From positions 62,001-126,000 of the forward strand of contig NZ_NKFP01000007.1 of NCBI RefSeq assembly GCF_002215035.1: a stretch of DNA of 64,000 nucleotides, written 5' to 3'. Position numbers and translations under genes: made by a program. This document shows positions 16,484-46,000 of this stretch, in pieces. The notes beneath the pieces are model-generated. The model saw only the letters and a program-made list of their open reading frames with translations. It was not told the DNA's origin and searched no databases. The stretch is from Leptolyngbya ohadii IS1 (lineage in GTDB: Bacteria > Cyanobacteriota > Cyanobacteriia > Elainellales > Elainellaceae). How positions within the stretch are numbered: position 1 is the first letter of the stretch; each line of letters begins with the position of its first letter.

Positions 16484-17140
16484 CTACTCCTGAAATTTGC
16501 GTTTGCTAGGGGGTTGGGTCCACAAAAAGCAGTAGCCGCTCGTCACTCTGCGATCGCCTACCCGCATTGCACCCAACTCGCGGACTCGCGCCTCACACTG
16601 ACCATTCATCAAATCCGGGTTCCAGTCGAAAATCTGCTGGGCATAGCGACCTTCCTTGCTTTGTCCCCACTTCAGCGCAACCACTTCATCAGCCGTCAGT
16701 CCCCGTCCATCCATCTGCACCAGCCAGCGTGATGCACCAAAGCCAGAGAGCGCACCGACGAGCAATACTGTGAGCGTGATGAACCCAGCCCCCATCAGGG
16801 ATTTATAGGTCACTACGTTTTTGGCTTCGTTGCCTTTGGCGATCGAGGCAGTTACCAACTGGTCTACTGTCTTGGCAATATCCTGTTTCATGCCTGCCAG
16901 AGCCGCCTTCTCGTAGCCGCCGTACTCTAGCCGCAGCTTTTCAAAACAGTCGTTGAACGTCTGTCGCAGGTCGTTGGGAGCCTGGTTGAGCAAAACCTGA
17001 ACGGTAGAGTTAGCAACCATCAGCAGAAATAGTGGGTCGCTCTCCCGCAATCCTGACTCATGCACGACGCTCATCACCTTTAAACGAGTGGCATCGTCCT
17101 GTCCGTCTAACAATTTTTCAAGCAGCTTGTTTTCTGTCAT
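16484..17140 (-). CDS. DUF6753-like membrane protein
   Basis: 218 residues beginning MTENKLLEKLLDGQDDATRLKVM, followed by a DPLFLLMVANSTVQVLL segment, which recalls DUF6753 proteins found on cyanobacterial plasmids. One clear transmembrane segment (GAGFITLTVLLVGALSGFGA) lies near residues 117-136. The C-terminal part is probably on the other side of the membrane and ends in a basic tail (PPSKRKFQE). It is the first gene downstream of a repeat-rich promoter region and sits three bases before the AAA+ gene. Function unknown; a membrane partner for the AAA+ protein is a reasonable inference. Confidence 0.7.
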   Translation of the reverse strand: MTENKLLEKLLDGQDDATRLKVMSVVHESGLRESDPLFLLMVANSTVQVLLNQAPNDLRQTFNDCFEKLRLEYGGYEKAALAGMKQDIAKTVDQLVTASIAKGNEAKNVVTYKSLMGAGFITLTVLLVGALSGFGASRWLVQMDGRGLTADEVVALKWGQSKEGRYAQQIFDWNPDLMNGQCEARVRELGAMRVGDRRVTSGYCFLWTQPPSKRKFQE

Positions 17141-17188: not shown

Positions 17189-17269
17189 TTAGACTAGAAT
17201 TTAAGTTTCAGTCCAGTTAAGTCAGGCTCAAAGAAAATGATTAGACTTAACTTATAATGCTAGTCTAAT
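17189..17269. promoter_or_regulatory. Promoter/operator region with TTAGACT repeats
   Basis: TTAGACTA at 17189 begins a 31-bp element that matches one at 56346-56376 at 24 of 31 positions. A second dyad, ATTAGACT (17240-17247) and AGTCTAAT (17262-17269), flanks a TATAAT-like box at 17253-17258. The region lies between the stop of the ParA-like gene and the start of the DUF6753-like gene, so it probably drives the genes from 17140 downward. The binding factor is unknown. Confidence 0.5.
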
Positions 17270-18296
17270 TAGCTGAAGTAGGCGGCTCAGGCTCCGATGG
17301 TGGCTCAGGCTCCGATCGCTGAGTTGGTAGTATGGCAACTGCTTCCCCTTTTCTAGGTCGTTTACTTTTTGGCGATGGGTTAGCTTCTGTCGAGGCTTCA
17401 TCGGCTGTTGATGCTTCTGCCTGCTTTGCGCGGAATGCAGGCAAATCGGTTGTGAAAATCTGGGCTATAACTTCTGTTGCCCTTTCAGCAAAGGTTTTGA
17501 CGCGCTGTGCCTCAATCCACCTGCGCTCAGTCATAAATGCCTCAACGCCTGCTTCGTAGGTGAGGTTGTGTTTATCCAGGTAAAATTGCTCCTCGCTGCC
17601 CAAAACGGGAAAATCCCGCAAGCATACTAAATTGGGACTACGAGGAATTTTGTTTTCAGAACTGGCTTCAGAACTGTTTTCGGGACTCCCAACAATCTTT
17701 TGGTAAAGCGGTTCGTCGTCTAGATAGGCGAAGCTCTTGCTATTGAGCCTTCCCTCATTACGAATAACAATATGAGGAAGCTTACCATCCAGCATTTCGA
17801 TCGACTCTGCCAGTAGCCGGATTGAGGCGTAGCAGCCATCAGTCACAAACCAGTGATACAGGTCAATGTTTTGCTTCTGACAGAGCCGAAGTAAATCGAC
17901 CGATCGCATCCAGCGAGCCAGCGCGTCGTTGGTTTCTGCCGGAAGGTTTACAAGAACGCACTGTTTTTCAACGGCTTGCTGAAAAATAACGTCCGGTTCG
18001 CTATATTTGCGGGGATCATCACTGAGCGAGATTGTGACCGCATCTGTGATTTTGCCGCCTTCAAAGCCACCGTAAACCTTACCCACATCGCCGATCGTAA
18101 TGTCGGCTTCAACCAGGCTGAATTGCTGCTGCTTTTGGGTGAGGTACTCCGCCAAGTGACGAGAGAGGAAAGTCTTACCGACTCCCCCTTTACGACCACC
18201 GACTAAGTGAATCTGTGAACGGGTGGAAGCGGTTGGTGCAGATGTTTCAGAAACAGGGGTGTCCTGAGATACAGACTGTGCAACTGGAGGATTCAT
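17265..18296 (-). CDS. ParA/MinD-like P-loop ATPase
   Basis: 343 residues. After a Ser/Pro-rich start, IHLVGGRKGGVGKTFLSRHL carries a deviant Walker A (KGGVGKT, 36-42), the hallmark of ParA/MinD/CobQ ATPases. It is followed by VEADITIGDVGKVYGG, where the switch aspartates would lie. The C-terminus is a long basic low-complexity tail (SPKSKRPRKGEAVAI). It follows parM and two small paralogues on the same strand. It may help plasmid partition or positioning of the transfer apparatus. A pairing of actin-type and ParA-type ATPases in one operon is unusual. Confidence 0.8.
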   Translation of the reverse strand: MNPPVAQSVSQDTPVSETSAPTASTRSQIHLVGGRKGGVGKTFLSRHLAEYLTQKQQQFSLVEADITIGDVGKVYGGFEGGKITDAVTISLSDDPRKYSEPDVIFQQAVEKQCVLVNLPAETNDALARWMRSVDLLRLCQKQNIDLYHWFVTDGCYASIRLLAESIEMLDGKLPHIVIRNEGRLNSKSFAYLDDEPLYQKIVGSPENSSEASSENKIPRSPNLVCLRDFPVLGSEEQFYLDKHNLTYEAGVEAFMTERRWIEAQRVKTFAERATEVIAQIFTTDLPAFRAKQAEASTADEASTEANPSPKSKRPRKGEAVAILPTQRSEPEPPSEPEPPTSAN

Positions 18297-18380: not shown

Positions 18381-18806
18381 CTAGCGAGGTCGGCTGAGAT
18401 AAAGTGCTATCATCCGCAGCTCTAACTCATCGTCAAGATTGTTATTGCCGCTACTTCCCCCTGTCTCACGGCTGAAGCCCGACGAACCAGATACTGCTCT
18501 TTCAGTGTCATTAGTGTTAGAGGTAAGTCCAGCAAGCTGCTCGATTTCATAGATATAGCCCTTGAGCTTACCAATGCAGTCTAGAGCAATTGAACGATTC
18601 AGTTTACCTTCGTCATCCAATGCTGCCGCAGTAAATCGGACTTTGAGCAGTTCTTTTATCAGTTCAGAAACAACGTATTCTCGACGCTCTAGATACTTTA
18701 TCACCAGAGCAAATTGCAGATCCCGTTTATATCGAAACTGGTATCGGACGCTAAGTAGATCCGCCGAAGAATTGGAAGCAGAGGCGTTAGAAGAATTGGC
18801 ATTCAT
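18381..18806 (-). CDS. Small ParR-like candidate, tandem paralogue 1
   Basis: 141 residues. A Ser/Asn-rich start is followed by SVRYQFRYKRDLQFALVIKYLERREYVVSEL and a helical core with KLNRSIALDCIGKLKGYIYEIEQLAGL; the C-terminus is acidic and disordered. It is clearly homologous to the next gene upstream. Position directly after the actin-like ATPase is where parR lies in type II partition operons. The fold cannot be confirmed by eye, so the ParR role is inferred from context. Confidence 0.7.
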   Translation of the reverse strand: MNANSSNASASNSSADLLSVRYQFRYKRDLQFALVIKYLERREYVVSELIKELLKVRFTAAALDDEGKLNRSIALDCIGKLKGYIYEIEQLAGLTSNTNDTERAVSGSSGFSRETGGSSGNNNLDDELELRMIALYLSRPR

Positions 18807-18888
18807 GCTGCTCTTTCATATTGGAATCGGGACTCAAATCGTGTCATTACGTCCCCAAATCGAAACTGCAAATAAGCCAAAATATTTA

Positions 18889-19332
18889 TCAAGCAGAACG
18901 GCTGGGAGTAAATCCCAGCATTCGATCAATCGAGTCGAAATCAACCGCTGGCGGATGGGATAGCGTGACATCATCAGGCTCTAGCTCGTCATCATGGTCG
19001 TTGTAGCCGTAATTGCCACTATCCTCCGAACCACGATTTAGAATTGGATGAGACTCTGTTTTTTCAGTACCAGACTTAATTCCAGCAAGCTGCTCAATTT
19101 CATAGATGTAGCCCCGGAGTTTACCAATACACTCCAGGGCAATAGCTTGATTGAGCTTGCCTTTTTCTTGCAGTGCAGCAGGAGCAAATCGAGCTTTTAT
19201 CAGTTCCTTAAAAACATCTTGGAGAACATATCCACGATGCTCTAGATAATCCAGCACCGAAGCAAAATGCTGGTCTTTGCTGTACCGAAATCGAAGCCGG
19301 ATATTGAATAGAGATGAGGAGTTTGAATTCAT
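18889..19332 (-). CDS. Small ParR-like candidate, tandem paralogue 2
   Basis: 147 residues beginning MNSNSSSLFNIRLRFRYSKD. It shares with its neighbour the pattern RFRY-KD-x-FA-x-V-x-YLE-R-x-YV and the block IALECIGKLRGYIYEIEQLAG. The C-terminus is acidic (YNDHDDELEPDD). Its ATG overlaps the parM stop by four bases, which implies translational coupling with the actin-like ATPase as in parM-parR pairs. It is the better parR candidate of the two. The short basic beta start followed by helices would suit a ribbon-helix-helix DNA-binding fold, but that is inference. Confidence 0.75.
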   Translation of the reverse strand: MNSNSSSLFNIRLRFRYSKDQHFASVLDYLEHRGYVLQDVFKELIKARFAPAALQEKGKLNQAIALECIGKLRGYIYEIEQLAGIKSGTEKTESHPILNRGSEDSGNYGYNDHDDELEPDDVTLSHPPAVDFDSIDRMLGFTPSRSA

Positions 19333-20420
19333 GCTACTTCTTCAAGTTGAAATCGGGACTCGAACAGGGTCATCACATCTCCGAATCGGAACTTTAAGCA
19401 GGGATCAGACTGGCTTAATTCCCCAGAGTGGCTGGCAAGCCATTCGGGAGTTGCCCATTCAAAGTGCTTTTCGAGGAAAGGTTTGAGATAGATGCTTGTG
19501 CCACCACTGATAATCAAATGATTCAAATCATCGGGAACAACTGCATTGAGCCAGTCCTGAACTAACTGCCAATACTCGTATCGAGCAATTTCAATCGCAT
19601 CCACCAGGAGCTTTGCTTCTGCATGGATATTCTCAGGCTGGGTCGATCGAATGAGAAACTGCAATTCACAATGGTCAGTTCGTAGATCTGAGCCAATCGC
19701 ATACACCGCTTCAACCAGTGCGTACCGATTTTGTCCCGGTGTGCGAGCAATAACCTTATCGATTAGCTTAACAAAGCCTAGATCAGTTGTGGCACTATGA
19801 TACGTTTCGATAACCCCCCGGTTCAACGTCAAGCAGCTAATATTCCGATAGCCAAAAATTAGTATGCTAACGCGGTTCTGACTGATCCACTCCATTCCAT
19901 GCTGGCGGATCAAGTGACACATCATGCCTGTACCTTCAGAGGCGCAGTGATAGGACATGAGGTGTCCCCGAATCACTGTGTTCTGGAAATAATACTTCTT
20001 AAGACTTTTGGAAATTTTTTCTCTTAGCCATTCTCGGCTATTGATTTCACCGTAGGGAAGTAGCAGAGCAGCGTCTACTGAGACTCGATCGAGCCGTTCT
20101 CGCAGGGAGATAGCCCCAACAGCCGCTAGGAACTTATAGAAGGCGTACTCATATTTGAGCATTCCAATACGTTCAACCGCTGAAAATTCTCTGGCAAGAA
20201 ATCCACACACATGAATCCGCTCTGCGTTCTGATCGAGCCTGACCCATGCTTGGTCTTCGGGCTGTGCCGTCAGGTTGAGATGACTGACCGAGCGAGCGGG
20301 CAAGTTGAGAACATCCGGCTCCATCATCAGGATTTTGGGTGGCGTGCTGTTAACCGAGTACACGACTTTAGACAGCGAAGCACCAGGATCAAACCCAATT
20401 TGCAACTTAGCTGACTGCAT
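19329..20420 (-). CDS. ParM-type actin-like partition ATPase
   Basis: 363 residues of the actin-like superfamily. The first phosphate loop is GFDPGASLSK (residues 9-18) and the adenosine loop is HLIISGGTSIYLKP (from about 301), with SILIFGYRNISCLTLNRG as the second phosphate loop. Such proteins form filaments that push plasmid copies apart once bound by ParR on parC. The gene is followed immediately by two small paralogues (4-base overlap with the first) and preceded by a repeat array that looks like a centromere. An StbA- or Alp-type member is possible; the exact subfamily cannot be judged here. Confidence 0.85.
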   Translation of the reverse strand: MQSAKLQIGFDPGASLSKVVYSVNSTPPKILMMEPDVLNLPARSVSHLNLTAQPEDQAWVRLDQNAERIHVCGFLAREFSAVERIGMLKYEYAFYKFLAAVGAISLRERLDRVSVDAALLLPYGEINSREWLREKISKSLKKYYFQNTVIRGHLMSYHCASEGTGMMCHLIRQHGMEWISQNRVSILIFGYRNISCLTLNRGVIETYHSATTDLGFVKLIDKVIARTPGQNRYALVEAVYAIGSDLRTDHCELQFLIRSTQPENIHAEAKLLVDAIEIARYEYWQLVQDWLNAVVPDDLNHLIISGGTSIYLKPFLEKHFEWATPEWLASHSGELSQSDPCLKFRFGDVMTLFESRFQLEEVA

Positions 20421-20519
20421 AAATTGTTGTGAAAGCTTTTGTTCCTCACTATCTTATCCCGTGTTTTCACACTGAAATTCGTCTGCCAATTGGTATGACT
20501 CAAAGGCATAAAAATAGCT
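20421..20519. other. Leader between parM and the repeat arrays
   Basis: About 100 bases of AT-rich DNA upstream of the parM start, expected to carry its ribosome site and 5' untranslated leader. I see no additional gene or strong hairpin. Confidence 0.4.
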
Positions 20520-20705
20520 GGACACAATTGGTCACAGATGGTCACGTTTTTGTCGTTTTTGGACACACTCTAGTTGTAAAAAATTCCATTCAACCCCTTT
20601 AATCTCAAATGAAATGGCTTAAAAATAGCCTTTTTATCTATAAAACTGGACACATTTTTGTCGCTTCTGGGCACAAGCGGACAGGGCTGGTCACAAACGG
20701 TCACA
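20520..20705. repeat. Candidate parC centromere: two arrays of ~10-bp repeats
   Basis: Short units of consensus GG(A/T)CACA recur at a 10-bp period. Array 1 has units at 20520, 20530, 20540, a degenerate TTGTCG near 20550, and 20561. Array 2 has units at 20648, a degenerate TTGTCG near 20658, then 20669, 20679, 20689 and 20699. Both arrays contain the same arrangement of a unit, TTTTTGTCG, and another unit 21 bp after the first. They flank an AT-rich 80-bp segment (20568-20647). This copies the plan of R1 parC, where two iteron blocks flank the par promoter, and lies directly upstream of parM. The repeats are seen directly; the function is inferred. Confidence 0.8.
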
Positions 20706-20940
20706 AAATCCTAGACTCTTTGCTAGTCAGAGATTATAGCAAGCAAATTAAAACAGCATACCTTCTGTTTTTGCCGTAGTTTTAGACAGCTTCAAAAATT
20801 CTTTTGAGTTAACTTTTACAAATTTGTTGAGTTTTGTTTTTATTCCTTATTTCAACATCCCAATATTAGGGAAGAGGACACTACACTAATTGAAAGCGAG
20901 CAATCACTCCTTAGCAGTATCCACCTGTCTCTCTTGAGCA
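20706..20940. other. Divergent control region, possible oriT
   Basis: 235 bases without a gene before the relaxase operon. It contains TTGCTA (20720-20725) with TAGCAA (20737-20742), TCAAAA (20792-20797) with TTTTGA (20802-20807) around ATTC, and the palindrome ACAAATTTGT near 20818-20827. AATCCTAG at 20707 faintly resembles the MOBP nick core. A transfer origin beside the relaxase accessory gene would be normal, and the promoter for the plus-strand transfer genes must lie here. No base is assigned as nic. Confidence 0.45.
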
Positions 20941-21237
20941 ATGTCTTCTCAATCCAAATGTCGTTTTTCTGTTTATGCCACGCCGCAAGAGCATCAGTTC
21001 TTTCGTGAGCGGGCAAAAGCTCGACGCATGACAGTTTCTCGCTATGTCCGATCGCTTGCTGACTCTGAGCAGATAAAAACGGCAGAACAGCTACGGAACA
21101 TTCAGCAGCACACACGACAACTCACGAGATGCCTGAACGGGTTGCGTCAGGTTCTTTCAAACACCGAGCATTCCTCACATCTGTTCAGCAAAGCAATTGC
21201 GCTTCTCGTTCAAATCGAGGAGGAAGCCCAAAGATGA
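20941..21237 (+). CDS. Relaxosome accessory protein (MobC-like)
   Basis: 98 residues. It begins MSSQSKCRFSVYATPQEHQF, then RERAKARRMTVSRYVRSLAD, a strand-helix-helix pattern typical of the ribbon-helix-helix proteins that assist relaxases (MobC/TraJ-like). The C-terminal helices would support dimerisation. The relaxase ATG overlaps its stop codon (ATGA), so they are translated together. It probably binds oriT next to it and helps the relaxase find nic. Assignment rests on fold pattern and context. Confidence 0.75.
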   Translation: MSSQSKCRFSVYATPQEHQFFRERAKARRMTVSRYVRSLADSEQIKTAEQLRNIQQHTRQLTRCLNGLRQVLSNTEHSSHLFSKAIALLVQIEEEAQR

Positions 21238-23447
21238 TTGGCAAGACAACGCTCTCCCACAGTTTTGAAGCAACCCTGCGCTATGTCTACAGCAAACCAA
21301 ACGTAACGACGATAGATGCGACCCTGACCGCCGCATTCACCGAAGACCCGCTGAAAATTGCAGAGGCAATGAGTGTAGTGGCTCGCGATCGTTCTCCCAA
21401 GCCGTGCTACCACATTTCACTTTCCCCATCACAAAATGACCATCTAGACACTGAAGACTGGCATCAGATTAGTGCTGATTTCCTCAGTGGACTAGGAGCC
21501 GAAACGCATCAAGCAGTCGCCGTATTGCACACAGATGCGACATACCCAGATGGAACAGTTCGACCCCACTTGCATTTCGTGATCAATCGGTTTGAATCGA
21601 TTAATTCAGATGCTCGCGCTCTGTGTCTGCATTTTCCTCATATTGAGAAGGTGATTCGCAAGCTAGAGCGGGATTATGCGCTCGAATCAATTCCCTGTAG
21701 CTGGGAAGCCGATCGCCGGGGGGATGCTGCCTCACAGTACCACCGCACACAGAGAGACGGTGTTCCTTCCGTTCGCACCCAGGTTCAAGAGTCGATCGAC
21801 CAAACAATTGCTCAGGCAACGACCGTCGATGAGTTTCTTCGTGGACTGCAAGGACAGGGAATTCAATCAAACCTTGCCGCAGAAGGCATTTCGTTTGAGC
21901 AAGAAGGCATTTCGTTTGCAGGCTACCAGCTTGGAAAAGCATACACCCGCAGCCATGTTGAAAAGGTCTTAGGTAGGAATAGCACCATGCTTCAAAGTGA
22001 CGCAGCGCGATCGGGGATGTCGATGGCGGACCTGATGCAAAAAGCTTCAGAAGGGGTGATTCCTGCACCTGAAGCAGAAGAGTCAACTTCTCCTGCACCT
22101 AAAGTTGAGGAAATACCTTTAGTTGATCCCCATCCGGAACCTCAGCCTCAAACTGAATCGCAGCCAAATCGAAAACCTAGAGAACCTGTTGTTCCTTCTC
22201 CCCTACTGGCAGAAACCGGAACTGCCCTAGAGAACCTGGGGCAGACGATCGGGGGTGGTCACGAAATTGACGGGATGATGCTAGGTGGAGCTGCAACTCA
22301 ACTGGCGGGTGCTGCCGTCATGCTGGGAGATGCTTTTCTGAAGCGAATTGCAGAAGCAAAGGAGCGAGAGCAAAGTGAACGCGCCCAAAGATTAATTGAG
22401 CAGTTAGAGCAAGTGGGTCAGCGGACAACGGCTCTAGAAGAAACGGTTCAGGCACAAACACAATCTCGCACGACAGCCGCCCCTGCTGAACCTCTAACAG
22501 TGGCGACCCCCTCTCCAACTCCTGCATCTTCCACAGTCTCTCAACCTGCTCAGCAGAAAAGTTTTCCTCAGCAATCCTCTACAAGTCCGTTAGCAGAAAG
22601 CTTTGGACTAGCACAGCAACGACTGGAAAAACTGGAGCGACAGGCAGGACTGCCTCCAATTGAATATCCTGCCCTAAAGTTTGACCATAACGCTTCGATC
22701 GATGAGCAGCTTGATCAAATGGAAGCGGCTCTGAAGCAAATTAATGAGCGGCTGGAAAAGCTGGAGATTGTGCTACAGCCAGAGGCAACGGTTGTCACAA
22801 ACAAACCTACGGCTGAACAGGTCGCTGAAAGCTTGGCAAACTACGTTCAGGCAAGAGCGCAGTATTACAGGCTTGCGCCAACGGAACCTGTGAAAACGCG
22901 AACAATGGGAACGATCGAGTTGTCTCATTCCGAAAGCGGTAATGACGTGATTGCCGTAGTAGAACGACCCTTTGGCGCAAAGTTTGAGGCAACAAAGCAA
23001 GACGGCAAATGGGAAGTTGCCAGCAATGATTTATCTGATAGAGAAATAGAAACAATTATCAAACTGCCGCAAACCGCGCATGAGTATGAATCAGTCACGC
23101 AAAACAAGGCACTGGTTCGCTATTTCCAGAAACGTGCCCCTCAAGAATTTGAAGGGGAGCAAGGCAGGATTGTTTGGAACGACAAACATGACAGATTTAA
23201 TTATCGCTTCGACATCGCTACAGATCGAAGCGGTAACAAAACGGTAATCGGTATCGATCAACGTACCGAGAAGGTGGTGATGCAGGCGCAAATTAAAAGC
23301 GATGGCAGCATTCAAGTCGATCGGGCGCACGTTCCAAAAGAACACACCGAATCGTTGCTGCATCAGCAAGAGGCGACCAAATCTGCCGAATCTAAAGTGG
23401 CTCAGCTTCACAAAAAGCAGCGGTCACGTCCTGAACTCTCCCTATGA
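21234..23447 (+). CDS. Conjugative relaxase (MOBP/MOBQ-type)
   Basis: 737 residues from the ATG at 21234, chosen because AGGAGGAAG lies just upstream and it overlaps the previous stop. The N-terminal relaxase domain has a candidate catalytic tyrosine in LRYVYSKPN and the metal-binding motif HLHFVIN (His112, His114, Asn118) following PDGTVRP; HISLSPSQ precedes it. The middle is a Pro/Glu-rich linker and coiled coil. The C-terminal 200 residues form a separate beta-rich domain of unknown role. It should nick oriT and be carried with the DNA into the recipient. A 21-bp tandem duplication creates EGISFEQ EGISFAG after residue 215. Confidence 0.88.
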   Translation: MIGKTTLSHSFEATLRYVYSKPNVTTIDATLTAAFTEDPLKIAEAMSVVARDRSPKPCYHISLSPSQNDHLDTEDWHQISADFLSGLGAETHQAVAVLHTDATYPDGTVRPHLHFVINRFESINSDARALCLHFPHIEKVIRKLERDYALESIPCSWEADRRGDAASQYHRTQRDGVPSVRTQVQESIDQTIAQATTVDEFLRGLQGQGIQSNLAAEGISFEQEGISFAGYQLGKAYTRSHVEKVLGRNSTMLQSDAARSGMSMADLMQKASEGVIPAPEAEESTSPAPKVEEIPLVDPHPEPQPQTESQPNRKPREPVVPSPLLAETGTALENLGQTIGGGHEIDGMMLGGAATQLAGAAVMLGDAFLKRIAEAKEREQSERAQRLIEQLEQVGQRTTALEETVQAQTQSRTTAAPAEPLTVATPSPTPASSTVSQPAQQKSFPQQSSTSPLAESFGLAQQRLEKLERQAGLPPIEYPALKFDHNASIDEQLDQMEAALKQINERLEKLEIVLQPEATVVTNKPTAEQVAESLANYVQARAQYYRLAPTEPVKTRTMGTIELSHSESGNDVIAVVERPFGAKFEATKQDGKWEVASNDLSDREIETIIKLPQTAHEYESVTQNKALVRYFQKRAPQEFEGEQGRIVWNDKHDRFNYRFDIATDRSGNKTVIGIDQRTEKVVMQAQIKSDGSIQVDRAHVPKEHTESLLHQQEATKSAESKVAQLHKKQRSRPELSL

Positions 23448-30496: not shown

Positions 30497-32173
30497 ATGA
30501 AGACCGACGATCAATACACCCTGATTACCTCCAGTTCAGTCTCTCAACTCGACCCAGGCGAGTTTAATGAGTCGGATGACTTATCACTGGAAGAACGCCA
30601 GCGGCTTGCGGGACTGGATGAAGAAACGCAATCTCTAATTGCGCCTGAACATCGCATTGATCCAGAGGTCGTTCCGGTCAAACGTGAACTGGCACAATCT
30701 CCCGTTTCACGCACCGTGTTTGTCCTGGGAAGCGTTGGCGTGTTTGTGTCTTTTGGTTTAGGAATTGCGATGATTGCCGGAATTGGGCGATCGCGACAGC
30801 CACAGGTTGCAGAGACACCGCCTGCAACCGATAGCGATGTCGTGACGGCTTCAGATGCCGATCTATACAAAGGACGACTAGCCCTCACAGACCAGCAGCG
30901 CGATCAGCAGCAGCCACCGACTCCGGCTGCACCCACAACCGCACCTAAGCGACCGACCCCACCTCGCCGCACCAGTGCTGCTCCTGCCCGACCCCGACCC
31001 GTCCCATCCGCTGCTCCAGTCCGGGCACGTCCTGCCCCAATTCCCATCGCCACCCGTCCGGCTCCGCCTCCCCGAACCGTCACGCCTCGTCCGGCTCCGA
31101 TGCCGCAGCGCACTCAGCCAGAGGTCAATCCTTTTGATCAATGGAATCGGCTTGCCACGATCGGCTCAGCCTCCGCAGAAGTGGCAGCAAGACCCGTAGA
31201 GGAAGTGTCAAGGATTAATTCATCTGAGCGTTCATACTCGTCGATACAGCAGACTCAGACCGACTTCCCCTCAGATGTAATTGGAGATAGCAGCTTCAAT
31301 GAAAGCGTCAGCCCACCGATTACTGAAACGGTTGGTACAGCCTCCGCAGATGTAGCCATTTCTCCAGAAGAAGCTGTACCATCAATGCCCCAGGATGTTT
31401 TAATCGCATCGAGTGCAGGCACAGGAAGCGTTTCTAGCTCTAGCAGTCCTGCCCCAGTCAGTGTTGGAACCAGAGGCATTTTAGAACAGCGTGAAATTGG
31501 GGATGGGCTATCGCCGGACGGAAACTATCAGGTCGCACTGGGAACCTCGGCGGAAGCTGAAGTGGCTGTACCTTTGTACTGGGAATCAGGCAGAGCGAGA
31601 CAGGGCACTCCAGGGCGATTTGCTGTAACCCTAACGCAGCCGCTAATGTCCACCAATGGAGAAGTGGCTCTTCCGGCTGGAACTACGTTTATTACTGAAG
31701 CACAGGTTAGCAGCGACCAGAGCCGCATTGTCAATCAAACGGTAGTGGCAGTGGTGTATGAGGGTGCAGACGGACAAATCCGCCAGGAACCTGTCACGCC
31801 AGGAACGATCGTGATACGTGGAGAAAACAATGGACCGCTCATTGCCCGTCGCCACCAGAACAGCGATTTGGGGAACGATTTGATGCTAGGTGCAGTTGGG
31901 GCACTGGGACGAGTCGGGGAGTTAATCAACCAGGGAGAAGTGTTCTCGTCAAGTTCCAGTTCTGGCAGTTCGTCTTCTTCAACCACGATTACGCGCAATG
32001 GCAACACAAACGTTCTGGCTGCTGCCCTAGATGGCTTCTTTAATCCACTGGTTGAGCGAATGCAGTCTCGCGCTCAGTCACGAGATGCAGATCAGCAAAG
32101 CACCATTCTGGAAGTGAATGAAGGGCAACCTGTCTCAGTCTTTGTTAACGGTCTTTTGGAGGTCGCGCCATGA
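30497..32173 (+). CDS. VirB10/TraB-like channel-spanning protein
   Basis: 558 residues with ribosome site GGGGGAG. A cytoplasmic N-terminus is followed by one transmembrane helix (VFVLGSVGVFVSFGLGIAMI), a long Pro/Arg/Ala-rich periplasmic linker and a C-terminal beta domain. The C-terminal domain has LPAGTTFITEAQVSSDQSRI and the later ARRHQNSDLGNDLMLGAVGA, matching VirB10 barrels. Two degenerate repeats, SASAEVAARPVEEV and TASADVAISPEEAV, lie in the linker. It would couple inner-membrane energy to the outer channel. The next gene overlaps its stop by four bases. Confidence 0.7.
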   Translation: MKTDDQYTLITSSSVSQLDPGEFNESDDLSLEERQRLAGLDEETQSLIAPEHRIDPEVVPVKRELAQSPVSRTVFVLGSVGVFVSFGLGIAMIAGIGRSRQPQVAETPPATDSDVVTASDADLYKGRLALTDQQRDQQQPPTPAAPTTAPKRPTPPRRTSAAPARPRPVPSAAPVRARPAPIPIATRPAPPPRTVTPRPAPMPQRTQPEVNPFDQWNRLATIGSASAEVAARPVEEVSRINSSERSYSSIQQTQTDFPSDVIGDSSFNESVSPPITETVGTASADVAISPEEAVPSMPQDVLIASSAGTGSVSSSSSPAPVSVGTRGILEQREIGDGLSPDGNYQVALGTSAEAEVAVPLYWESGRARQGTPGRFAVTLTQPLMSTNGEVALPAGTTFITEAQVSSDQSRIVNQTVVAVVYEGADGQIRQEPVTPGTIVIRGENNGPLIARRHQNSDLGNDLMLGAVGALGRVGELINQGEVFSSSSSSGSSSSSTTITRNGNTNVLAAALDGFFNPLVERMQSRAQSRDADQQSTILEVNEGQPVSVFVNGLLEVAP

Positions 32174-33009
32174 AATTCCTAAAGCGTAGTTTGTTCTGGT
32201 GGAGCGTTGTTTTATCTCCATTGCTCTTGGCGATCGCCTCCCCCAATGCAAAAGCCAACGGGCTACCGCCTGCCCCGGCTGAACCAATCAATCCAGCTAC
32301 TCGGTGGGAAACGCCAACACCACCAGGAACATTAACTCAAGTTTCGCAGGCACAGGCACAGCGGTATGCTCAAACCGTTCCGATCTATGCAGGGCGCAAT
32401 GCTGCAATTACCTTTCAAACCGGGGAACGGATTCAGTTTTTGCAGGTTTCTGACCCGTCCGCGATCGTATTCAACACAAATACCCCTGTTGAAAGCGGAC
32501 AGGCAACCGTCATCCTGTTACGACTGATTCGACCGCTTCGCTTTCCAGGACTACTGACAACCGAACGTCCGAACCTAACCGTTACCACAACAAGAGGAAC
32601 CTACTTCTTCGACTTGCAGCCCGTTCATCAAGCGCAGTCACGCAACCAGCCCAGTGGTGTTGCCATTGTGCCCGGTAACTCACTTGGCTTTGCTGCCTTT
32701 GGGCAAACCACGATCGTCACAGCACGGGGACGGGCAACCGTGGAGGACGTTCGCCGGGGGCTTTCGGTCGCCATTGGGCGAAACTATACCCGACCTGATG
32801 ATCCGGTTGTGGCGCAGGTGCAGCGAGCAATGACCCTGATGCGGCAGGGTGCATCGATTCCTGAAATTGTTACGGCAACCTCTGCTCCGGCGCTGCCGCA
32901 AGTGCTGGCAAGACTGGGAGAACTGGGAATTGAGAGCGGACAAGCTAATCCCTCTCAATTCCCTAACGCTTCCCCCGATGCTCTTTCAAATTCTTCTTCT
33001 GCATTATGA
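32170..33009 (+). CDS. VirB9/TraK-like outer channel protein
   Basis: 279 residues with a signal peptide ending NAKA. It has a Pro-rich segment followed by a beta-rich domain (AGRNAAITFQTGERIQFLQV, then NLTVTTTRGTYFFDLQPV). Positions in gene order and strand content resemble VirB9/TraK, which forms the outer part of the channel with VirB10. The C-terminal helical region (PDDPVVAQVQRAMTLMRQG) is unlike VirB9 and may be specific to the cyanobacterial systems. Moderate confidence because motifs are weak. Confidence 0.5.
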   Translation: MKFLKRSLFWWSVVLSPLLLAIASPNAKANGLPPAPAEPINPATRWETPTPPGTLTQVSQAQAQRYAQTVPIYAGRNAAITFQTGERIQFLQVSDPSAIVFNTNTPVESGQATVILLRLIRPLRFPGLLTTERPNLTVTTTRGTYFFDLQPVHQAQSRNQPSGVAIVPGNSLGFAAFGQTTIVTARGRATVEDVRRGLSVAIGRNYTRPDDPVVAQVQRAMTLMRQGASIPEIVTATSAPALPQVLARLGELGIESGQANPSQFPNASPDALSNSSSAL

Positions 33010-35111
33010 GTAAACTTCTCATTATCGAAGCTCCGGGAAAGCTGAAAAAGCTAAAGGCGATTCTTCCCGATTGGACGATTAAAGCGAGCGGTGGACATAT
33101 CCGGGAACTGGCAAAAGACAAGCAGGACGCTCTAGGATTCCAGCTACAGGGCAATCATGTTGTTTGCCAATGGACACCCCGCAGTCCCCAGGCAAAACAG
33201 ACGATCGCTGAACTGCGAGCCGCTGTGAAAGCAGCAGACCAAGTGATCCTGGCAACAGATGAAGACCGGGAGGGCGAGACGATCGGGTGGCATCTGGCGG
33301 AGGAACTGCGGCTCAAAAATCCCCTCAGAGCAACTTACCGCGAAATCACTTCAGATGCGGTAAAAGCAGCGATCGCCAACCCCAGACCGCTTAACCTCGA
33401 TCTGGTTCATGCGGGACTGTGCCGCTCGGTGCTAGATAAATTGGTAGGATTCAAGGGATCTCCCCTGGTATGGCAGCTCAACAACGGGGCGAAGTCCGTA
33501 GGGAGGGTGCAGTCAGCAACGCTGCATTTAGTCGCGGAGCTAGAAACCAAAATCCGCAATTTTGAGCCGCAGGACTACTGGACGGTATTTGTGCAGTACG
33601 AGGAAGGCTTTCGCGCCTTCTATCACGGCGGCGTATTTTCCCCGGCAGAAGCCGAGGAATCAGATGCAACTGTACCCGGCGAGGGCAAGCCCGACGAGGG
33701 CGATCGGGTCACGTCTCAAGCCGAAGCCGATCGATTAGTGCAAATTGCTCAGTCTCAACCGCATCGCGTGATTAGCGTTGAAGGGAAAACGGTCTTGAAA
33801 CAACCACCTGCACCTTTTACCACGTCCACGCTTCAGCAAGCTGCCAGCACCAAGCTCAAGCTAAACCCGGAAACCACAATGGCGGTGGCGCAAAAGCTCT
33901 ATGAAGGTGGCTACATCACCTATATGCGAACGGATGCGACGTTTCTGGCTCCGCCCTTTGTAGAGGCAGCGCGAGGTTGGCTGGAACAGCACGACCGGGA
34001 GAATTTGCCGCCGCAGATCAAGCAGCACAAGTCAGGCAAAAATGCTCAGGAAGCGCACGAAGCAGTACGACCGACCGACATCAGCAAAACGCCTGATGGC
34101 ATAGTACGGGAACTGGAAGGCAATGCGCTTGGGCTTTATACCCTGATTTGGAACCGCACGATTGCTTCACTTTGTCAGCCTGCCCGGATTCAGCAAACGC
34201 GCATTGTCACTCAGTCGGGCACGGTGCAGTGGTTAGCAAAAGGACAGATGGTTGTCTTTGAAGGGTTTGCGAAATACTGGCGATCATTGGGCGCTGATGC
34301 GGAATTACCATCCATCCAGCAAGGGCAATCGCTGAAACGAACGGAATCTGGCAGCGAGAAAAAGCAGACGCAGCCGCCCAGCCGCTACAGCGAAGCGCAG
34401 CTTGTGCAGATGATGGAGCGGAGAGGGATTGGTCGCCCCAGTACATTTGCCTCCACGATCGCCACGCTAAAGGATCGGGAATACGTTCGCGTGGTGAAAA
34501 GCAAGGTTGAGCCAACCGATCGCGGGATGGATGTAGATCGATTTCTGTCCCAGGCAATGCCAACCCTGGTAGACACCGACTTTACGGCTGAAATGGAATT
34601 GCAGCTTGATTTGATTGCCGAAGGCAAATTGAACTGGGAAGGCTGGCTGACGCAGTGGAATCGAACGCAGTTTGAACCTGCTCTGAGCCAAGCCCTTCGC
34701 ATCATGCCGCAACACGCTCATGCTCACCCCACGTCTGAAGTGAGTTGCCCAAGCTGTGAAACGCCCATGCAGCAGATTTCTAGCACCAAAGTTAGAAAGG
34801 GGTTCTTCCTCAAGTGCCCAACCTGCGAGGACTGCGTGATGTTCTGGAACGATCGGTCGCAGGGGTGGGAGTTACCCAAGCCGAAAGCAGCAGGCAAAGT
34901 TACATCCTTGCCCTGTCCGGTGTGCCAAAAGCCATTGGAAGAACACACCTACGTCAAAGAGGGGGTTGAGAAGGTGATGCTGCGGTGCAGCGATGACTCG
35001 GCTCGTCAGCAAAAGAACCACAAGGAAGCCGTGTATTTTCAGTCGAGCAAAGGGGGGTTTTGGAGTCCGAAGTTTGGCACAGTCGATTACAGCGTGACTG
35101 GGGGCAGCTAG
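33006..35111 (+). CDS. topA: Plasmid type IA DNA topoisomerase with C-terminal zinc ribbons
   Basis: 701 residues. The TOPRIM domain starts MSKLLIIEAPGKLKKLKAIL (Glu8) and carries ATDEDREGE (Asp85, Asp87, Glu89). The catalytic tyrosine is Tyr306 in YITYMRTDATF. The C-terminus has two zinc-ribbon domains: CPSC...CPTCEDC from about residue 580, and CPVCQKPLEEHTY...LRCSDD from about 637. It cleaves and rejoins single strands to relax supercoils or resolve DNA during transfer. It overlaps the VirB9-like stop and precedes the coupling protein by one base, so it is an integral part of the transfer operon, like TraE of RP4. Confidence 0.93.
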   Translation: MSKLLIIEAPGKLKKLKAILPDWTIKASGGHIRELAKDKQDALGFQLQGNHVVCQWTPRSPQAKQTIAELRAAVKAADQVILATDEDREGETIGWHLAEELRLKNPLRATYREITSDAVKAAIANPRPLNLDLVHAGLCRSVLDKLVGFKGSPLVWQLNNGAKSVGRVQSATLHLVAELETKIRNFEPQDYWTVFVQYEEGFRAFYHGGVFSPAEAEESDATVPGEGKPDEGDRVTSQAEADRLVQIAQSQPHRVISVEGKTVLKQPPAPFTTSTLQQAASTKLKLNPETTMAVAQKLYEGGYITYMRTDATFLAPPFVEAARGWLEQHDRENLPPQIKQHKSGKNAQEAHEAVRPTDISKTPDGIVRELEGNALGLYTLIWNRTIASLCQPARIQQTRIVTQSGTVQWLAKGQMVVFEGFAKYWRSLGADAELPSIQQGQSLKRTESGSEKKQTQPPSRYSEAQLVQMMERRGIGRPSTFASTIATLKDREYVRVVKSKVEPTDRGMDVDRFLSQAMPTLVDTDFTAEMELQLDLIAEGKLNWEGWLTQWNRTQFEPALSQALRIMPQHAHAHPTSEVSCPSCETPMQQISSTKVRKGFFLKCPTCEDCVMFWNDRSQGWELPKPKAAGKVTSLPCPVCQKPLEEHTYVKEGVEKVMLRCSDDSARQQKNHKEAVYFQSSKGGFWSPKFGTVDYSVTGGS

Positions 35112-35112
35112 A

Positions 35113-36843
35113 ATGGCAAGCTCATCACTCAGCTCAAACTTGTGGACAACGCTCTCCTATACGCTGGGTGGCAGAACGGGATGGATGCTACTGCTGTTAT
35201 TGGGGGTGCTGCTGGGACTGAAGATCATCAGCCCCAAGAGAAAAGGACTTTTAACCGCCGCACAGTGGGCAACGACAGGCGCAAAGCTAAACGCGATTCG
35301 GCTGGCACAGAAGCAATTGAAATCGACCAAAGTAAACGATGTTTGCCTCTGGATAGGCAGTGCCCCAAACTGGCAGCTACAGGGCATCATGCCAAGCCTG
35401 CTGACAGTGACAGGCAAGCCGCCGACCGTTTATGTGCCCCAGGCAAATCGATCGGTTGCAGTCGTCGGAAAACCCAATTCAGGAAAAACCTTTAGTGCCC
35501 TGAACCCGATGATCGTGAGCGCGATCGAACAGGGAATGTCGCTTGTATTGTACGAGTACAAGGCAGACGAGCAAGGATTGGGCGGACAAATGGCGTATCT
35601 GGCAACGTTAGCGGTGCGCTATGGCTACAAGCTCAATATCTTTGCCCCTGGAAAGCCCTACACCTGCATCATTAACCCACTCGACTTCATGAAGGATTGC
35701 GAGGACGACACGACCGCAGCAGTGCTGGCAGAAGTCTTTCACGCAAACCTGACCGGAGGCGGCAAAAAAGGCGATGAGTTTTTCGGCTCTGCTGGGAAGC
35801 GACTGATTCAAGCCTTGTTTCAATTTGCTAAAAGTACTAAGTATCCAGATTTGGCAATGGCGTTTAACGTGCTGTCGCTGCCCAAGCTGGTTGAACGGTT
35901 AGACTATGCAGCGAATCAAGGCAAGCTGCCGTACTTTGTGCGCGTGAGCTTCAGCCAGTTCATTTCTACGCTGGGCGCAGATAAAACCACATCCGGCATT
36001 CAGGCAACGGCATCAGATCTGCTGACGCGATTTATCAGTCCGACGATGCTGCCGTCATTGATGGGCAAGACGAATATTTCCTCAATCCTGCAACAGAAGG
36101 AAATGATCGTCTTTCAGTCTGATATTTTCCGGCAGTCGGTGGTCAACCCCTTGCTGGCGGCGATTATCAACATCATCATGAACAAAAACTTTTCGATCGC
36201 CCGTACCAGCCCGATTGTCTTCAGCGCAGACGAACTTCCCAGTATCTATTTGCCAAAGCTGCCAACCTGGGCAAACGAACACCGATCGAAGGGGTACACA
36301 GGACTGTACGGCTATCAGTCTGCCGCACAGCTTCGAGAAGGCTACGGCAAAGACGGTGCAGATATTTTGCTGGGGGGATTGGCAACAACATTCTGGTTTC
36401 TACCTGCGAATCATGACGAATCCCGGATGTATCAGGAGCAGCTTGGGAATATCGAGATCAAGGTTCGCAATAAATCTTGGAATCCTGGCAAAGGGGGCGG
36501 AGCTTCCTATAGCGAACAACTGCAAACCCGACCCCTGATGCTGGCAGACGAGTTTAACGGATTTGATATTGGAGAGTGTGTGCTTCGCAATCCTGCTTAT
36601 AAAGCAAGTGGGCAAGCGAATTTGCCACAACATTTCAAGCAGCTAACGGTTCCCAAAGCCGATATCGAGCGAGAAAAAGAGTGTGAGGAAATTTGGAAGA
36701 AAGAGTTACTGCAAAACCTGACCGATCGCGAAACTGCTCGTAGACCCAAACTCAACCTGCTCCAACAGCTTGAGGCGCGACTGGCAGAAGCCGAACGGCT
36801 ATTGCCGCTGCCGCCCGATGAGGAAGACGACGATTACATCTAA
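35113..36843 (+). CDS. virD4: VirD4/TraG-type coupling protein
   Basis: 576 residues. One hydrophobic segment near residues 23-40 (GWMLLLLLGVLLGLKI) anchors it. The ATPase core has Walker A GKPNSGKT (119-126) within SVAVVGKPNSGKTFSAL and Walker B IVFSADELPSIYLP (Asp373-Glu374). A helical all-alpha insertion follows Walker A. The C-terminus is acidic (PPDEEDDDYI), a plausible dock for relaxosome proteins. It should bind the relaxase-DNA complex and pass it to the channel. Only one N-terminal span is visible, fewer than in RP4 TraG. Confidence 0.85.
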   Translation: MASSSLSSNLWTTLSYTLGGRTGWMLLLLLGVLLGLKIISPKRKGLLTAAQWATTGAKLNAIRLAQKQLKSTKVNDVCLWIGSAPNWQLQGIMPSLLTVTGKPPTVYVPQANRSVAVVGKPNSGKTFSALNPMIVSAIEQGMSLVLYEYKADEQGLGGQMAYLATLAVRYGYKLNIFAPGKPYTCIINPLDFMKDCEDDTTAAVLAEVFHANLTGGGKKGDEFFGSAGKRLIQALFQFAKSTKYPDLAMAFNVLSLPKLVERLDYAANQGKLPYFVRVSFSQFISTLGADKTTSGIQATASDLLTRFISPTMLPSLMGKTNISSILQQKEMIVFQSDIFRQSVVNPLLAAIINIIMNKNFSIARTSPIVFSADELPSIYLPKLPTWANEHRSKGYTGLYGYQSAAQLREGYGKDGADILLGGLATTFWFLPANHDESRMYQEQLGNIEIKVRNKSWNPGKGGGASYSEQLQTRPLMLADEFNGFDIGECVLRNPAYKASGQANLPQHFKQLTVPKADIEREKECEEIWKKELLQNLTDRETARRPKLNLLQQLEARLAEAERLLPLPPDEEDDDYI

Positions 36844-43087: not shown

Positions 43088-46000
43088 ATGGCTGAACTTG
43101 ACCCCCTTTCCCCTGATCTCGCTGATTCTCCAGAATCAGATCAACCTGAAGCAGCCCAACAACCAACGCAGGTATCTTATCGTCCCCATAGTCAGGGGCG
43201 ATCGATTCAGACGGTTTGCCCTCCTACAATGGCAACGCCGATGAGCATCAGTCTCGATCGGGTAGAAGCCGTCACTGGACAATCGATTGATCAGTTTGTC
43301 GCCGATCGGCTGGGGATTGACTCAGAAACCCTGTTCCAGCGATATGCGGCAGAACAAATCGACTGTCTCTCGATTGCCTTCTTAAACCAGGACCGAGGCA
43401 GACCAACGTTGATTGCCAATGATACAGGAACAGGCAAAGGGCGAATTGTCAGCGGTGTCCTGTCGCCAATTCTCGCGGATGAGAGCAAGATTGCAGTCTT
43501 TATCACCGCAAAGCCGGATCTCTACGTCGATATGCTGGCACGGGATATGGTGGATACGGGCGTTCGCGATCAGGTGCGTCCCTTTTTCACGAATTCAGGG
43601 TTGAATCTTGAACTGACTTCTCCTGATGGCGAAGTGCTAGGCACGATCGAAACGCCTTCTAGCAAACAGCACCAGGCAGACACGCGAGCGTTGATCGAGG
43701 AATTTAAGGCAACCGGAACTCTAAGCGAGTACAACTGCATTTTCACCACCTACGATCAACTTGCACAGAAAGGGTCACTCAGGCGTGAGCTGATTCAAAC
43801 AATTGCTCCTAATGCAACATTCGTGCTGGACGAGTGCGACCTGGGTGGCGGTGCATCCGGTCCCACTCCGCCCCTGACTCAAAAAGAACTGTCACGCTCT
43901 GCGGCTGGCGAGGATATTCGCAGCGTTTCCACATTTCTAACTCAGAGTGTGCTGCCCAATAGTAATTCTTATGTGCTGCTATCAGCGACGGCATTCAAAG
44001 ACCCGTTCGTAATGACGCGACTGCTGTACTCCAAGAGCGAAATCCGAGAAACAGGCATCGATCGAGAAGCCCTGGCAGAGCGGCTGGTATCACAGGGCAT
44101 CCCCGGACAGCAAGACTTCACCAACAAACTGGCTCTCTCCGGTGAACTCGTGCGCCTGGAAAAGAGCATGGAGGGCATCACCTTTCAGGCGGAGGCTGTT
44201 CCGGTTAATTTAGAAGCGGTCGATGCTGCAAGCCGGATTACTTCTAAAATCGTGCAGTTTGACCGTGCTAAGCAAGAAGCGGTTGAAGTGCTGCGGGATA
44301 TTTATGCCGGAGCAGGTTCAGCCATTCAAGCCAGCGACGGCAGCGCAGGTACACCCAGCGTTGATTCCACGAACTTTACCAGCACAGCTTTTAACTTCCA
44401 GCAGCAATTTCTGTTCTTCCTTAAAGCGGAAGCAGTTGCAGACCGGACAATCGAATCGATCGAGGCAGGGCGCAAACCTGGCATTATCTTCTTCAACACC
44501 ATGCAGGCGGCGATTGAAGCCCACCTGGACAATAAGCGCGAGGATATCGAGCAGGAAGTCTTAGAGGAACTTCAAGAGGAGAATGGGGGTGAACCTGTCC
44601 CAGAGGAGCAGGTACAGGAAATTGCCAGAACGCGATATCACGAATGGTTGCGGGGCGAGCCTGCTCCAGAAATTACCTTGAACCTGGGGGATTTATTAGA
44701 GCGGCAACTTGATCGATCGCGCATGGTCACAATCAAAGATGCCTACGGCGGTCGGCAACGGCACTTTCTCACCGACGAAGAATTGGGGTATCAAGCCAGT
44801 GCCTTGGACAATGAGATTCGCTTGCTGTGCCAAAACACCGATTGGAGCGACATCAAGATTAGTGGTGTGGATGCCGTGTTGCAGCGTGTAGAGGCAGCAG
44901 GCTATACGATTGCGGAAATGTCGGGGCGCAGCTTGGGGATCGATTACAGCACTGATACCCCGCGATTTCGGGAGATCGATGCCAGTAAGCGAGACGTGCG
45001 AGCCGACGCAAAGAATGGCTTCAACAACGGCGAGAACGACGCTCTGATCACCAATATCACAACGGGCTGGTCGGGTCATGCCAGCCGAGGAGTGCGCGAC
45101 CAACGACAGCGTGAAACGATTCTGGCTCAGGCACACCCGGACGGCAATAAGCTAGTGCAGTCATTGGGACGATTCAATCGCGTTGGGCAGGTTGACCCCA
45201 GCCAGCACGAGCCGGACTGGACAGATGAGCAGGGGAATTCAGGCTGGGGCGAGGTGCGCGGTAAGCATAATATTGCGCCTCAGTTCGGGCTACCTATGAT
45301 GACGATGGTGTATGCCGATGGCGTGGCGTATGAAGAGCGCATTACAGCAAACATCAACCGGAAAATGGCAAGCCTAAATGCCAACACCACTGGTTCGCGC
45401 AATTCTGGAGTGAATCTGGGCGATGTGGATTTCCTTAATCCTTATGGCGATCAGGTTGCCTGGGATTTAATGAACGATGACCCGGAACTGCACCAAAAGC
45501 TCGACTTTCCGCTCGGAGAACCTTTTCCCTACAAAGAGTACGTTTCCGGCGCAATGGCAAGAGTGACAGGGCGCAGCTTACTTTTACCACTAGACGAACA
45601 GCGAAAGCTTTTTGACACGCTGAAGCAAAACTTTGTTGAATACATCGCGCAGCGGGAGGCGATCGGGGAGTCGCCGATGGAAGCCAAGACATTGGACTTG
45701 CAGGCAAAGACGATCGGGCGGATTGAGCTTGCTCCGGCGAAATCAGAAAGCCTCTTCGCCGGAGCCACCTTTGTTGAAGTGGTGCAGGCACGATCGCTTA
45801 GAAAGCCGATGACCGAAGAAGCTGCTGCCAATCAGGTGCGTAAGAGCCTGGGGATGGACAAGGTTGACGAAGTGCCCATCCGTGAGTTTGAGCCGAATGG
45901 AGAACCGCGAACGCTGGGTAAAGCAGCGATGGAAGCTCGGATTCAGGCAGTACAGGAAGTTGTCGAGAATAGAATTAAATCACTCGACGCTCGAATTGAC

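What the first reader, a model, noticed from the sequence alone, without database searches (positions are those of the whole stretch)
20520..20705. Candidate parC: two arrays of 10-bp-spaced GG(A/T)CACA units flanking a short AT-rich segment
Units occur at 20520, 20530, 20540 and 20561, and at 20648, 20669, 20679, 20689 and 20699, with a degenerate TTGTCG unit in each array at the same relative place. The plan is that of R1 parC, but the unit sequence and period differ. It appears to be a new centromere sequence.
Basis: partly seen in the sequence, partly recalled or inferred. Interest (0 to 1): 0.75.

Follow-up and report, generated by a model that had tools for sequence, protein, structure and literature searches.

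The report
Actin-type plasmid centromere beside relaxase genes
Two rows of short DNA repeats on a cyanobacterial plasmid are most likely the handle by which an actin-like motor moves plasmid copies apart at cell division, and in related plasmids the handle usually sits next to the gene that starts DNA transfer between cells.

Summary
The arrays are real: 5 + 6 units, not 4 + 5. Consensus TGGNCAC, 10-bp steps with one 11-bp step before a degenerate TTGTCG unit, 80-bp AT-rich spacer, 98 bases upstream of an actin-like parM. The closest relative, FACHB-502, keeps exactly 5 + 5. Fixed unit positions changed in 3 of 60 sites, the spacer in 18 of 79 (p=0.004). Of 30 parM loci tested, 13 have a significant 10/11-bp chain upstream and 12 of these form two arrays, with different unit sequences by lineage; chromosomal FcmB/CorM actin genes show a chain in 1 of 24. 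I read the site as parC of a parM-parR operon (0.85); binding is untested and the adaptor's fold unproven. The likely binder is the 147-aa protein; the 141-aa paralogue is a decaying duplicate. Unexpected: a relaxase gene of one of three classes lies on the upstream side of parM in 36 of 37 loci with enough sequence (26 of 27 without near-copies). Repeats of 10-11 bp in parC are known; the recurrent place beside the relaxase is the new part.

The parts
20519..20566 (+). Array 1: five units (TGGACAC, TGGTCAC, TGGTCAC, degenerate TTGTCGT, TGGACAC), steps 10,10,11,10
   Evidence: conserved in FACHB-502
20567..20646 (.). AT-rich spacer between the arrays (80 bp, 27.5% GC); 18 of 79 sites changed against FACHB-502
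20647..20704 (+). Array 2: six units (TGGACAC, degenerate TTGTCGC, TGGGCAC, CGGACAG, TGGTCAC, CGGTCAC), steps 11,10,10,10,10; one whole 10-bp unit fewer in FACHB-502
19329..20420 (-). parM-like actin gene (363 aa)
   Evidence: 113 plasmid records hold relatives at E 1e-5
18889..19332 (-). parR-like gene, 147 aa, overlaps the parM stop; proposed binder of the arrays; C-terminal DSIDRMLGF motif, of a kind seen by eye in about half of the 26 aligned relatives
   Evidence: (low-confidence model)
18381..18806 (-). second small paralogue, 141 aa: decaying tandem duplicate of the parR-like gene; conserved tail lies in another frame; absent in FACHB-502
18801..18867 (-). remnant of a parM 3' end in front of (and just into) the second paralogue, mark of the duplication
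   Evidence: 78% over 67 nt to the parM end; readable as FGDVMTRFESRFQYERAA
17265..18296 (-). ParA/MinD-type ATPase with KGGVGKT motif, comparable to StbB/TraL of stb operons; relatives downstream of parM in 23 of 40 loci
16484..17140 (-). DUF6753 protein; relatives in 23 of 40 loci
20801..20945 (.). second conserved block (7 of 144 sites changed; its last 5 bases are the nikA start): candidate oriT or promoter region, separate from the arrays
20941..21237 (+). NikA-like relaxosome accessory gene
   Evidence: PF21983, E 3.6e-9
21234..23447 (+). relaxase gene (MOBP-like), divergent from parM
   Evidence: PF03432, E 4.8e-18; TraI/MobA(P) model E 9.8e-15, below that model's cut-off

Best explanation
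The 186-bp stretch is the centromere (parC) of a plasmid-borne actin partition operon, parM-parR. Shown by sequence: two phased arrays of TGGNCAC units, fewer changes in the unit core than around it, the parM-like and small genes, and recurrence of the plan in relatives. Inferred: dimers of the 147-aa ParR-like protein bind the units; because the units are about one helical turn apart they sit on one face of the DNA, so the two loaded arrays bend into a ring or solenoid with the ParR C-terminal tails inside; these tails hold the end of a ParM filament, and filaments growing between two plasmid copies push them apart. The same complex probably represses parM. Because the site lies between parM and a relaxase gene in most relatives, the partition complex may also influence, or be influenced by, the relaxosome; that last step is the least certain.
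For: Arrays directly upstream of parM. FACHB-502 keeps 5 + 5 units at the same spacings; core positions changed 3 of 60, position 4 4 of 10, spacer 18 of 79, core against spacer Fisher p=0.0038. In 40 parM loci, near-copies included, 5-mer repeats upstream of parM count 223 and 213 at lags 10 and 11 against 55, 71, 75 and 42 at lags 8, 9, 12 and 13, with echoes at 20, 21, 22, 30 and 33. After removing near-copies 15 of 29 loci exceed shuffles at p<0.02, against 2 of 24 FcmB loci. A chain search gives 13 of 30 against 1 of 24 at p<0.05 (40 shuffles each, so p cannot go below 0.024), and in 12 of the 13 the chain splits into two arrays. ParM profile matches CorM (7.5e-26) and Cbc-ParM (4.9e-12). 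Two sub-alignments of the small downstream proteins match each other (98%, E 1.9e-13). Arrays also occur next to TrwC-type relaxases where one search found no relative of the window's NikA, relaxase or ParA: L054, L063, L066, and L053 (only); so they follow parM-parR rather than one transfer system.
Against: No binding or stability data. The ribbon-helix-helix fold of the small protein was not established: no convincing Pfam, NCBIfam or PDB match and a low-confidence model (mean pLDDT 48.6). 14 of 29 loci show no lag-10/11 excess at p<0.02 and 17 of 30 no significant chain, including L033, whose ParM is 59% identical. No sigma-70-type promoter was found in 20400-20960, so R1's 'repeats flank the promoter' was not confirmed. 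In the named plasmid pANACY.02 no small gene is annotated directly downstream of parM; a 525-bp gene lies upstream instead. The ParM model was also poor (pLDDT 49.2), and the single ParM sequence has no significant PDB or Pfam match.
Confidence: 0.85

Rival explanations
1. The arrays work like stbDRs of plasmid R388: a site bound by a small protein that places the plasmid and restrains conjugation, with the ParA-like protein as the partner; ParM is secondary.
For: Position beside the relaxase operon, a KGGVGKT ParA-like gene downstream of parM here and relatives of it in 23 of 40 loci, and in R388 two sets of five 9-bp repeats spaced by two nucleotides (PMC3098194, passages). Relaxase on the upstream side in 36 of 37 loci.
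Against: L054, L063 and L066 have clear two-array sites but no ParA relative was found in the fetched stretch. The loci were chosen by parM, so constant presence of parM is by construction. Nothing seen in the R388 passages mentions an actin in stb.
Confidence: 0.15
2. The arrays are only an operator: the small protein binds them to repress parM, with no centromere role.
For: Site directly upstream of parM; autoregulation is usual for partition operons (recalled).
Against: 10-11 units in two arrays over 186 bp is more than repression should need (judgement); the plan recurs with different unit sequences.
Confidence: 0.05
3. The arrays are part of oriT: sites for NikA or another relaxosome accessory protein.
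For: They lie in the parM-nikA intergenic region, 236 bases from nikA.
Against: A separate conserved block lies next to nikA (20801-20945, 7 of 144 sites changed). Arrays also occur where the neighbour is a TrwC-type relaxase.
Confidence: 0.06
4. The arrays are replication iterons.
For: Direct repeats also make up iteron origins (recalled).
Against: No replication initiator among the proteins scanned (only 20 proteins of the window were scanned). The plan recurs upstream of parM in 12 of 30 loci.
Confidence: 0.02

Closest known systems
parC of parMRC, plasmids R1 and pB171 (type II partition)
   Same: Direct repeats upstream of an actin-like parM, small adaptor gene just downstream; R1 has two sets of five repeats (PMC4949242, passage); R1 repeats are 11 bp and pB171 repeats 10 bp (PMC9426499, passage). 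FACHB-502 also has 5 + 5.
   Different: Unit sequence TGGNCAC; 80-bp spacer; no promoter recognised in the region; ParA-like and DUF6753 genes follow in 23 of 40 loci; relaxase gene nearby in 36 of 37.
stbABC/stbDRs of plasmid R388
   Same: Operon beside the transfer genes, two sets of short repeats upstream, small DNA-binding protein plus ParA-like ATPase (PMC3098194, passages).
   Different: R388 has 9-bp repeats spaced by two nucleotides and no actin in the passages seen; homology of the small protein to StbA was not tested.
FcmB-FcmC / CorM (chromosomal actin system of cyanobacteria)
   Same: The best PDB match of this ParM family's profile is CorM (9rmi), which belongs with FcmB (E 6.1e-152); FcmB is described as derived from a plasmid partition system (PMC12645912, passages).
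   Different: FcmB forms its own clade on a long branch; a chain upstream in 1 of 24 loci only (2 of 24); its partner FcmC matches the ParR-like family only weakly (probability 9%, E 0.0034).
Clostridium perfringens ParMRC families
   Same: Repeats differ between families in sequence and spacing, each with its cognate ParR (PMC9426499, passages).
   Different: 17-bp repeats or mixed repeats; another phylum.

Membership tests
parMRC (type II, actin-type plasmid partition) | actin-like ATPase gene | tested here: met
   Profile of 25 homologues hits CorM 7.5e-26, Cbc-ParM 4.9e-12, ALP12 9e-5, pCBH ParM 2.9e-4; many relatives annotated ParM/StbA. The single sequence alone was not significant.
parMRC (type II, actin-type plasmid partition) | direct repeats upstream of parM | tested here: met
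   for the window; for the family (15 of 29; 13 of 30)
parMRC (type II, actin-type plasmid partition) | small adaptor gene next to parM with ribbon-helix-helix DNA-binding fold | tested here: inconclusive
   Small gene overlaps the parM stop; fold not shown: no convincing family or PDB match, model pLDDT 48.6 with helices 21-32, 37-48, 62-83, 132-138
parMRC (type II, actin-type plasmid partition) | repeats flank the parM promoter (R1) | tested here: inconclusive
   No sigma-70-type consensus match in 20400-20960, 1.2 expected; cyanobacterial promoters may not fit the scan
parMRC (type II, actin-type plasmid partition) | ParR binds the repeats and the site stabilises a replicon | not testable with these tools
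   needs binding and stability assays
stb operon (R388 type) | ParA-like ATPase with KGGXXK[T/S] in an operon next to the mobility genes | tested here: met
   GGRKGGVGKT in 17265-18296; relaxase on the other side of the intergenic region
stb operon (R388 type) | StbA homologue | not tested
   no StbA sequence was compared
FcmB/CorM | over the NF052678 family cut-off (300 bits) | tested here: not met
   window ParM 14.6 bits; the genome's own FcmB is a different gene, G000:C4, 629.2 bits

The most novel reading that the evidence does not exclude
In cyanobacterial plasmids the actin centromere is a standing element of the transfer-origin region: whichever relaxase class a plasmid carries (TrwC, Mob_Pre or VirD2-like), a parM-parR module, often with its two-array parC, sits beside it, so that one actin/ParR complex serves both segregation and presentation of the relaxosome for conjugation, with a ParA-like protein as an extra switch in many.
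Probability: 0.3. Interest if true: 0.75.

Novelty: new variant of a known kind. Interest (0 to 1): 0.5.

Why it matters
Cyanobacterial 'ParM' genes were once postulated to be another class of actin-like protein rather than ParM orthologues (PMC12270681, passage). A centromere plan next to them in several lineages argues that they are partition systems and gives a short testable DNA site. It also supplies plasmid relatives of the FcmB/CorM morphology actin that, unlike FcmB, appear to keep a DNA site. The recurrent place beside relaxase genes makes the link between partition and conjugation, reported for R1 and R388 (PMC4949242, PMC3098194, passages), open to a direct test.

Tried and rejected
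Rejected or led nowhere: DNA similarity of the intergenic region to the plasmid and phage collections (no match). Plasmid search with the small protein (no match). The first look at upstream regions used the wrong side of the gene in most loci and was redone. Models of ParR (pLDDT 48.6) and ParM (49.2) were too poor, so no fold search was run. Likeness of the small protein to FcmC was weak; PDB searches with the small-protein sub-alignment A9 found nothing and with FcmC mainly coiled coils. Nesting of FcmB inside the plasmid ParMs cannot be claimed: no outgroup, long branch. L050's chain is seeded by GCGATCG, a common cyanobacterial word (recalled), and is not counted as a two-array site. Of 71 places listed, 40 were fetched: the best 42 less G196:C2 and G298:C358. 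In three of the 40 the contig ends 125, 426 or 997 bases beyond parM (L035, L059, L067), and these are left out of the relaxase count. One group comparison failed: L054 and L059, put together under CCCAA, have ParR-like proteins only 28% alike, and L059 has no significant array. Papers: search listings, abstract starts and passages only, none read whole. Searches in print for cyanobacterial ParM, parC or a relaxase link; I saw no paper describing it, but only listed rows were looked at and the library holds open-licence papers only. PMC8600333 on cyanobacterial conjugative plasmids has no 'ParM' in its main text.

Full report
OBSERVATION. The stretch holds two arrays. Array 1 has units at 20519, 20529, 20539, 20550 (degenerate TTGTCG) and 20560; array 2 at 20647, 20658 (TTGTCG), 20668, 20678, 20688 and 20698. 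Consensus TGGNCAC; steps of 10 bp, 11 bp before the degenerate unit. The spacer is 80 bp with 27.5% GC. GGWCACA occurs 14 times on the + strand of the window, 6 of them here. The double-unit pattern has 4 exact hits in the 7.9-Mb genome, 3 here; with one mismatch, 36 against 23 for the reversed control. A motif-free lag count does not rank this stretch first in the window (10 against 13 inside the relaxase gene), so conservation is the better argument.

CONSERVATION. FACHB-502 (L003/L032/L071, ParM 90%) keeps 5 + 5 units with steps 10,10,11,10 and 11,10,10,10; it lacks exactly one 10-bp unit, the most degenerate. At the ten shared units the six fixed positions changed in 3 of 60 sites and position 4 in 4 of 10; linkers 7 of 29, spacer 18 of 79, parM-side flank 14 of 100, stretch after array 2 25 of 92, and 20801-20945 7 of 144. 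Core against spacer: Fisher p=0.0038. This is one pair of plasmids; the missing unit was left out, and the units were defined on the window before the count.

GENES. 19329-20420(-) is an actin-like gene. Its family profile hits CorM (7.5e-26), Cbc-ParM (4.9e-12), ALP12 (9e-5) and pCBH ParM (2.9e-4); the single sequence finds nothing significant in the PDB or Pfam. Relatives are in 113 plasmid records; MOB-suite typing of these conjugative, 26 mobilizable and 35 non-mobilizable. The next gene, 147 aa, overlaps the parM stop. Small proteins follow parM in most loci looked at, and two sub-alignments of them match each other (98%, E 1.9e-13). There is no convincing Pfam, NCBIfam or PDB match. The model is poor; it shows helices 21-32, 37-48, 62-83 and a short one at 132-138. 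About half of the 26 aligned members, by eye, end in a short hydrophobic motif such as MLGF, MFAD or LFG; L036 and L037 do not. I take it as a candidate ParM-binding tail (inference, by analogy with R1 ParR, recalled).

SECOND PARALOGUE. The 141-aa gene is a tandem duplicate: a remnant of a parM 3' end (78% over 67 nt) lies at its start, its body is 68% identical in DNA to the first gene, and the sequence matching the conserved tail is in a different frame. FACHB-502 has one copy. It probably no longer holds ParM; whether it still binds DNA is open.

FAMILY. I fetched 40 of the 71 parM places listed. 5-mer repeats upstream of parM peak at lags 10 (223) and 11 (213), against 42-75 at lags 8, 9, 12 and 13, with echoes at 20-22, 30 and 33 (near-copies included). 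Without near-copies 15 of 29 loci pass p<0.02, against 2 of 24 FcmB loci. With one mismatch allowed 13 of 30 (those 29 plus FACHB-502) pass p<0.05, against 1 of 24 FcmB (only 40 shuffles each). Twelve of the 13 show two arrays: L031, L032, L034, L044, L045, L047, L049, L052, L054, L063, L066, L067. Unit words differ by lineage (TGGTCAC, GCCAA, TTCCCAA, TGCGTCA, AAGGTA, TTTGAATACA, CTGCC). ParR-like identity is 55-74% within the groups GCCAA, AAGGTA and TGGNCAC and 8-25% on average between groups; this follows relatedness in general and is not proof of co-evolution. The 17 other loci, including L033 (ParM 59%), do not reach significance: their units may be more degenerate, or they lack the plan.

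PLACE BESIDE THE RELAXASE. The arrays lie between parM and a divergent nikA-relaxase pair. Of the 40 loci, 37 have more than 1 kb of upstream sequence; 36 of these have a relaxase gene on that side: 23 by similarity to the window's relaxase and 13 by Pfam as TrwC, Mob_Pre or Relaxase. Without near-copies it is 26 of 27. L065 has none in about 5 kb, though a NikA-like frame lies 4 kb away (6.7e-6, just under the cut-off). In L055 and L064 the relaxase is 2-2.4 kb away, and in L050 it is on the parM strand. That TrwC and Mob_Pre stand for MOBF and MOBV is recalled. On the ParM tree five labels (three classes, unknown, FcmB) need 8 changes where 4 is the least; MOBF alone needs 5, partly because unknown rows sit inside it, and several branches are long. 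I take this, with caution, as repeated change of the neighbour's class while a relaxase stayed. A bias is possible: conjugative plasmids are relaxase-rich, and 35 of 113 plasmid records are typed non-mobilizable. ParA-like and DUF6753 genes follow in 23 of 40. Named examples: Tolypothrix sp. PCC 7601 plasmid unnamed3 has mobC, a transposase, ParM, hypothetical protein, 'mobilization protein', DUF6753; pANACY.02 has a relaxase on the far side but no small gene annotated directly after parM; pCRI9333.03 is typed MOBP and has ParM followed by hypothetical genes. The order resembles stb operons (PMC3098194), and a Par-conjugation link is reported for R1 (PMC4949242).

MECHANISM. The ParR-like protein loads the two phased arrays, bends them, and captures ParM filaments that push plasmid copies apart (0.85 for a parC-type site; the binding and motor steps are inferred). 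A role in presenting the relaxosome is possible (0.3).

NOVELTY. parC sites with 10- and 11-bp repeats are known (PMC9426499). New, as far as my searches went, are the site itself, the lineage-by-lineage unit sequences in cyanobacteria and the recurrent relaxase-side place. The genome also carries a chromosomal FcmB, of the CorM family, without a significant chain upstream (L097, p 0.29).

Noticed in passing
18381-18888: Second parR-like gene is a tandem duplicate with a parM 3'-end remnant at its start and its conserved tail out of frame; missing in FACHB-502.
   Followed up: yes
20796-20945: Conserved block before nikA (20801-20945: 7 of 144 sites changed against FACHB-502) with an imperfect palindrome at 20796-20825; candidate oriT.
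   Followed up: partly
L053, L054, L055, L061, L063, L066, L070: parM beside TrwC-type relaxases; in L053 and L054 the TrwC-helicase protein also holds a DUF3854 domain.
   Followed up: partly
L058, L062 (6.77-Mb contig of G259): parM, small gene, ParA-like and DUF6753 genes with Mob_Pre relaxases on a contig of chromosome size, possibly integrated elements.
   Followed up: no
G000:C4:102843-103889: Chromosomal FcmB/CorM-family actin gene in the same genome (629.2 bits to NF052678).
   Followed up: partly
43088-50851: 2587-aa protein with Strawberry-notch-type helicase and DUF6908 matches.
   Followed up: no
30497-36843: Transfer-related genes: weak TrbI match (below Pfam's cut-off), topoisomerase, and a TraG/TraD-type coupling protein.
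   Followed up: no
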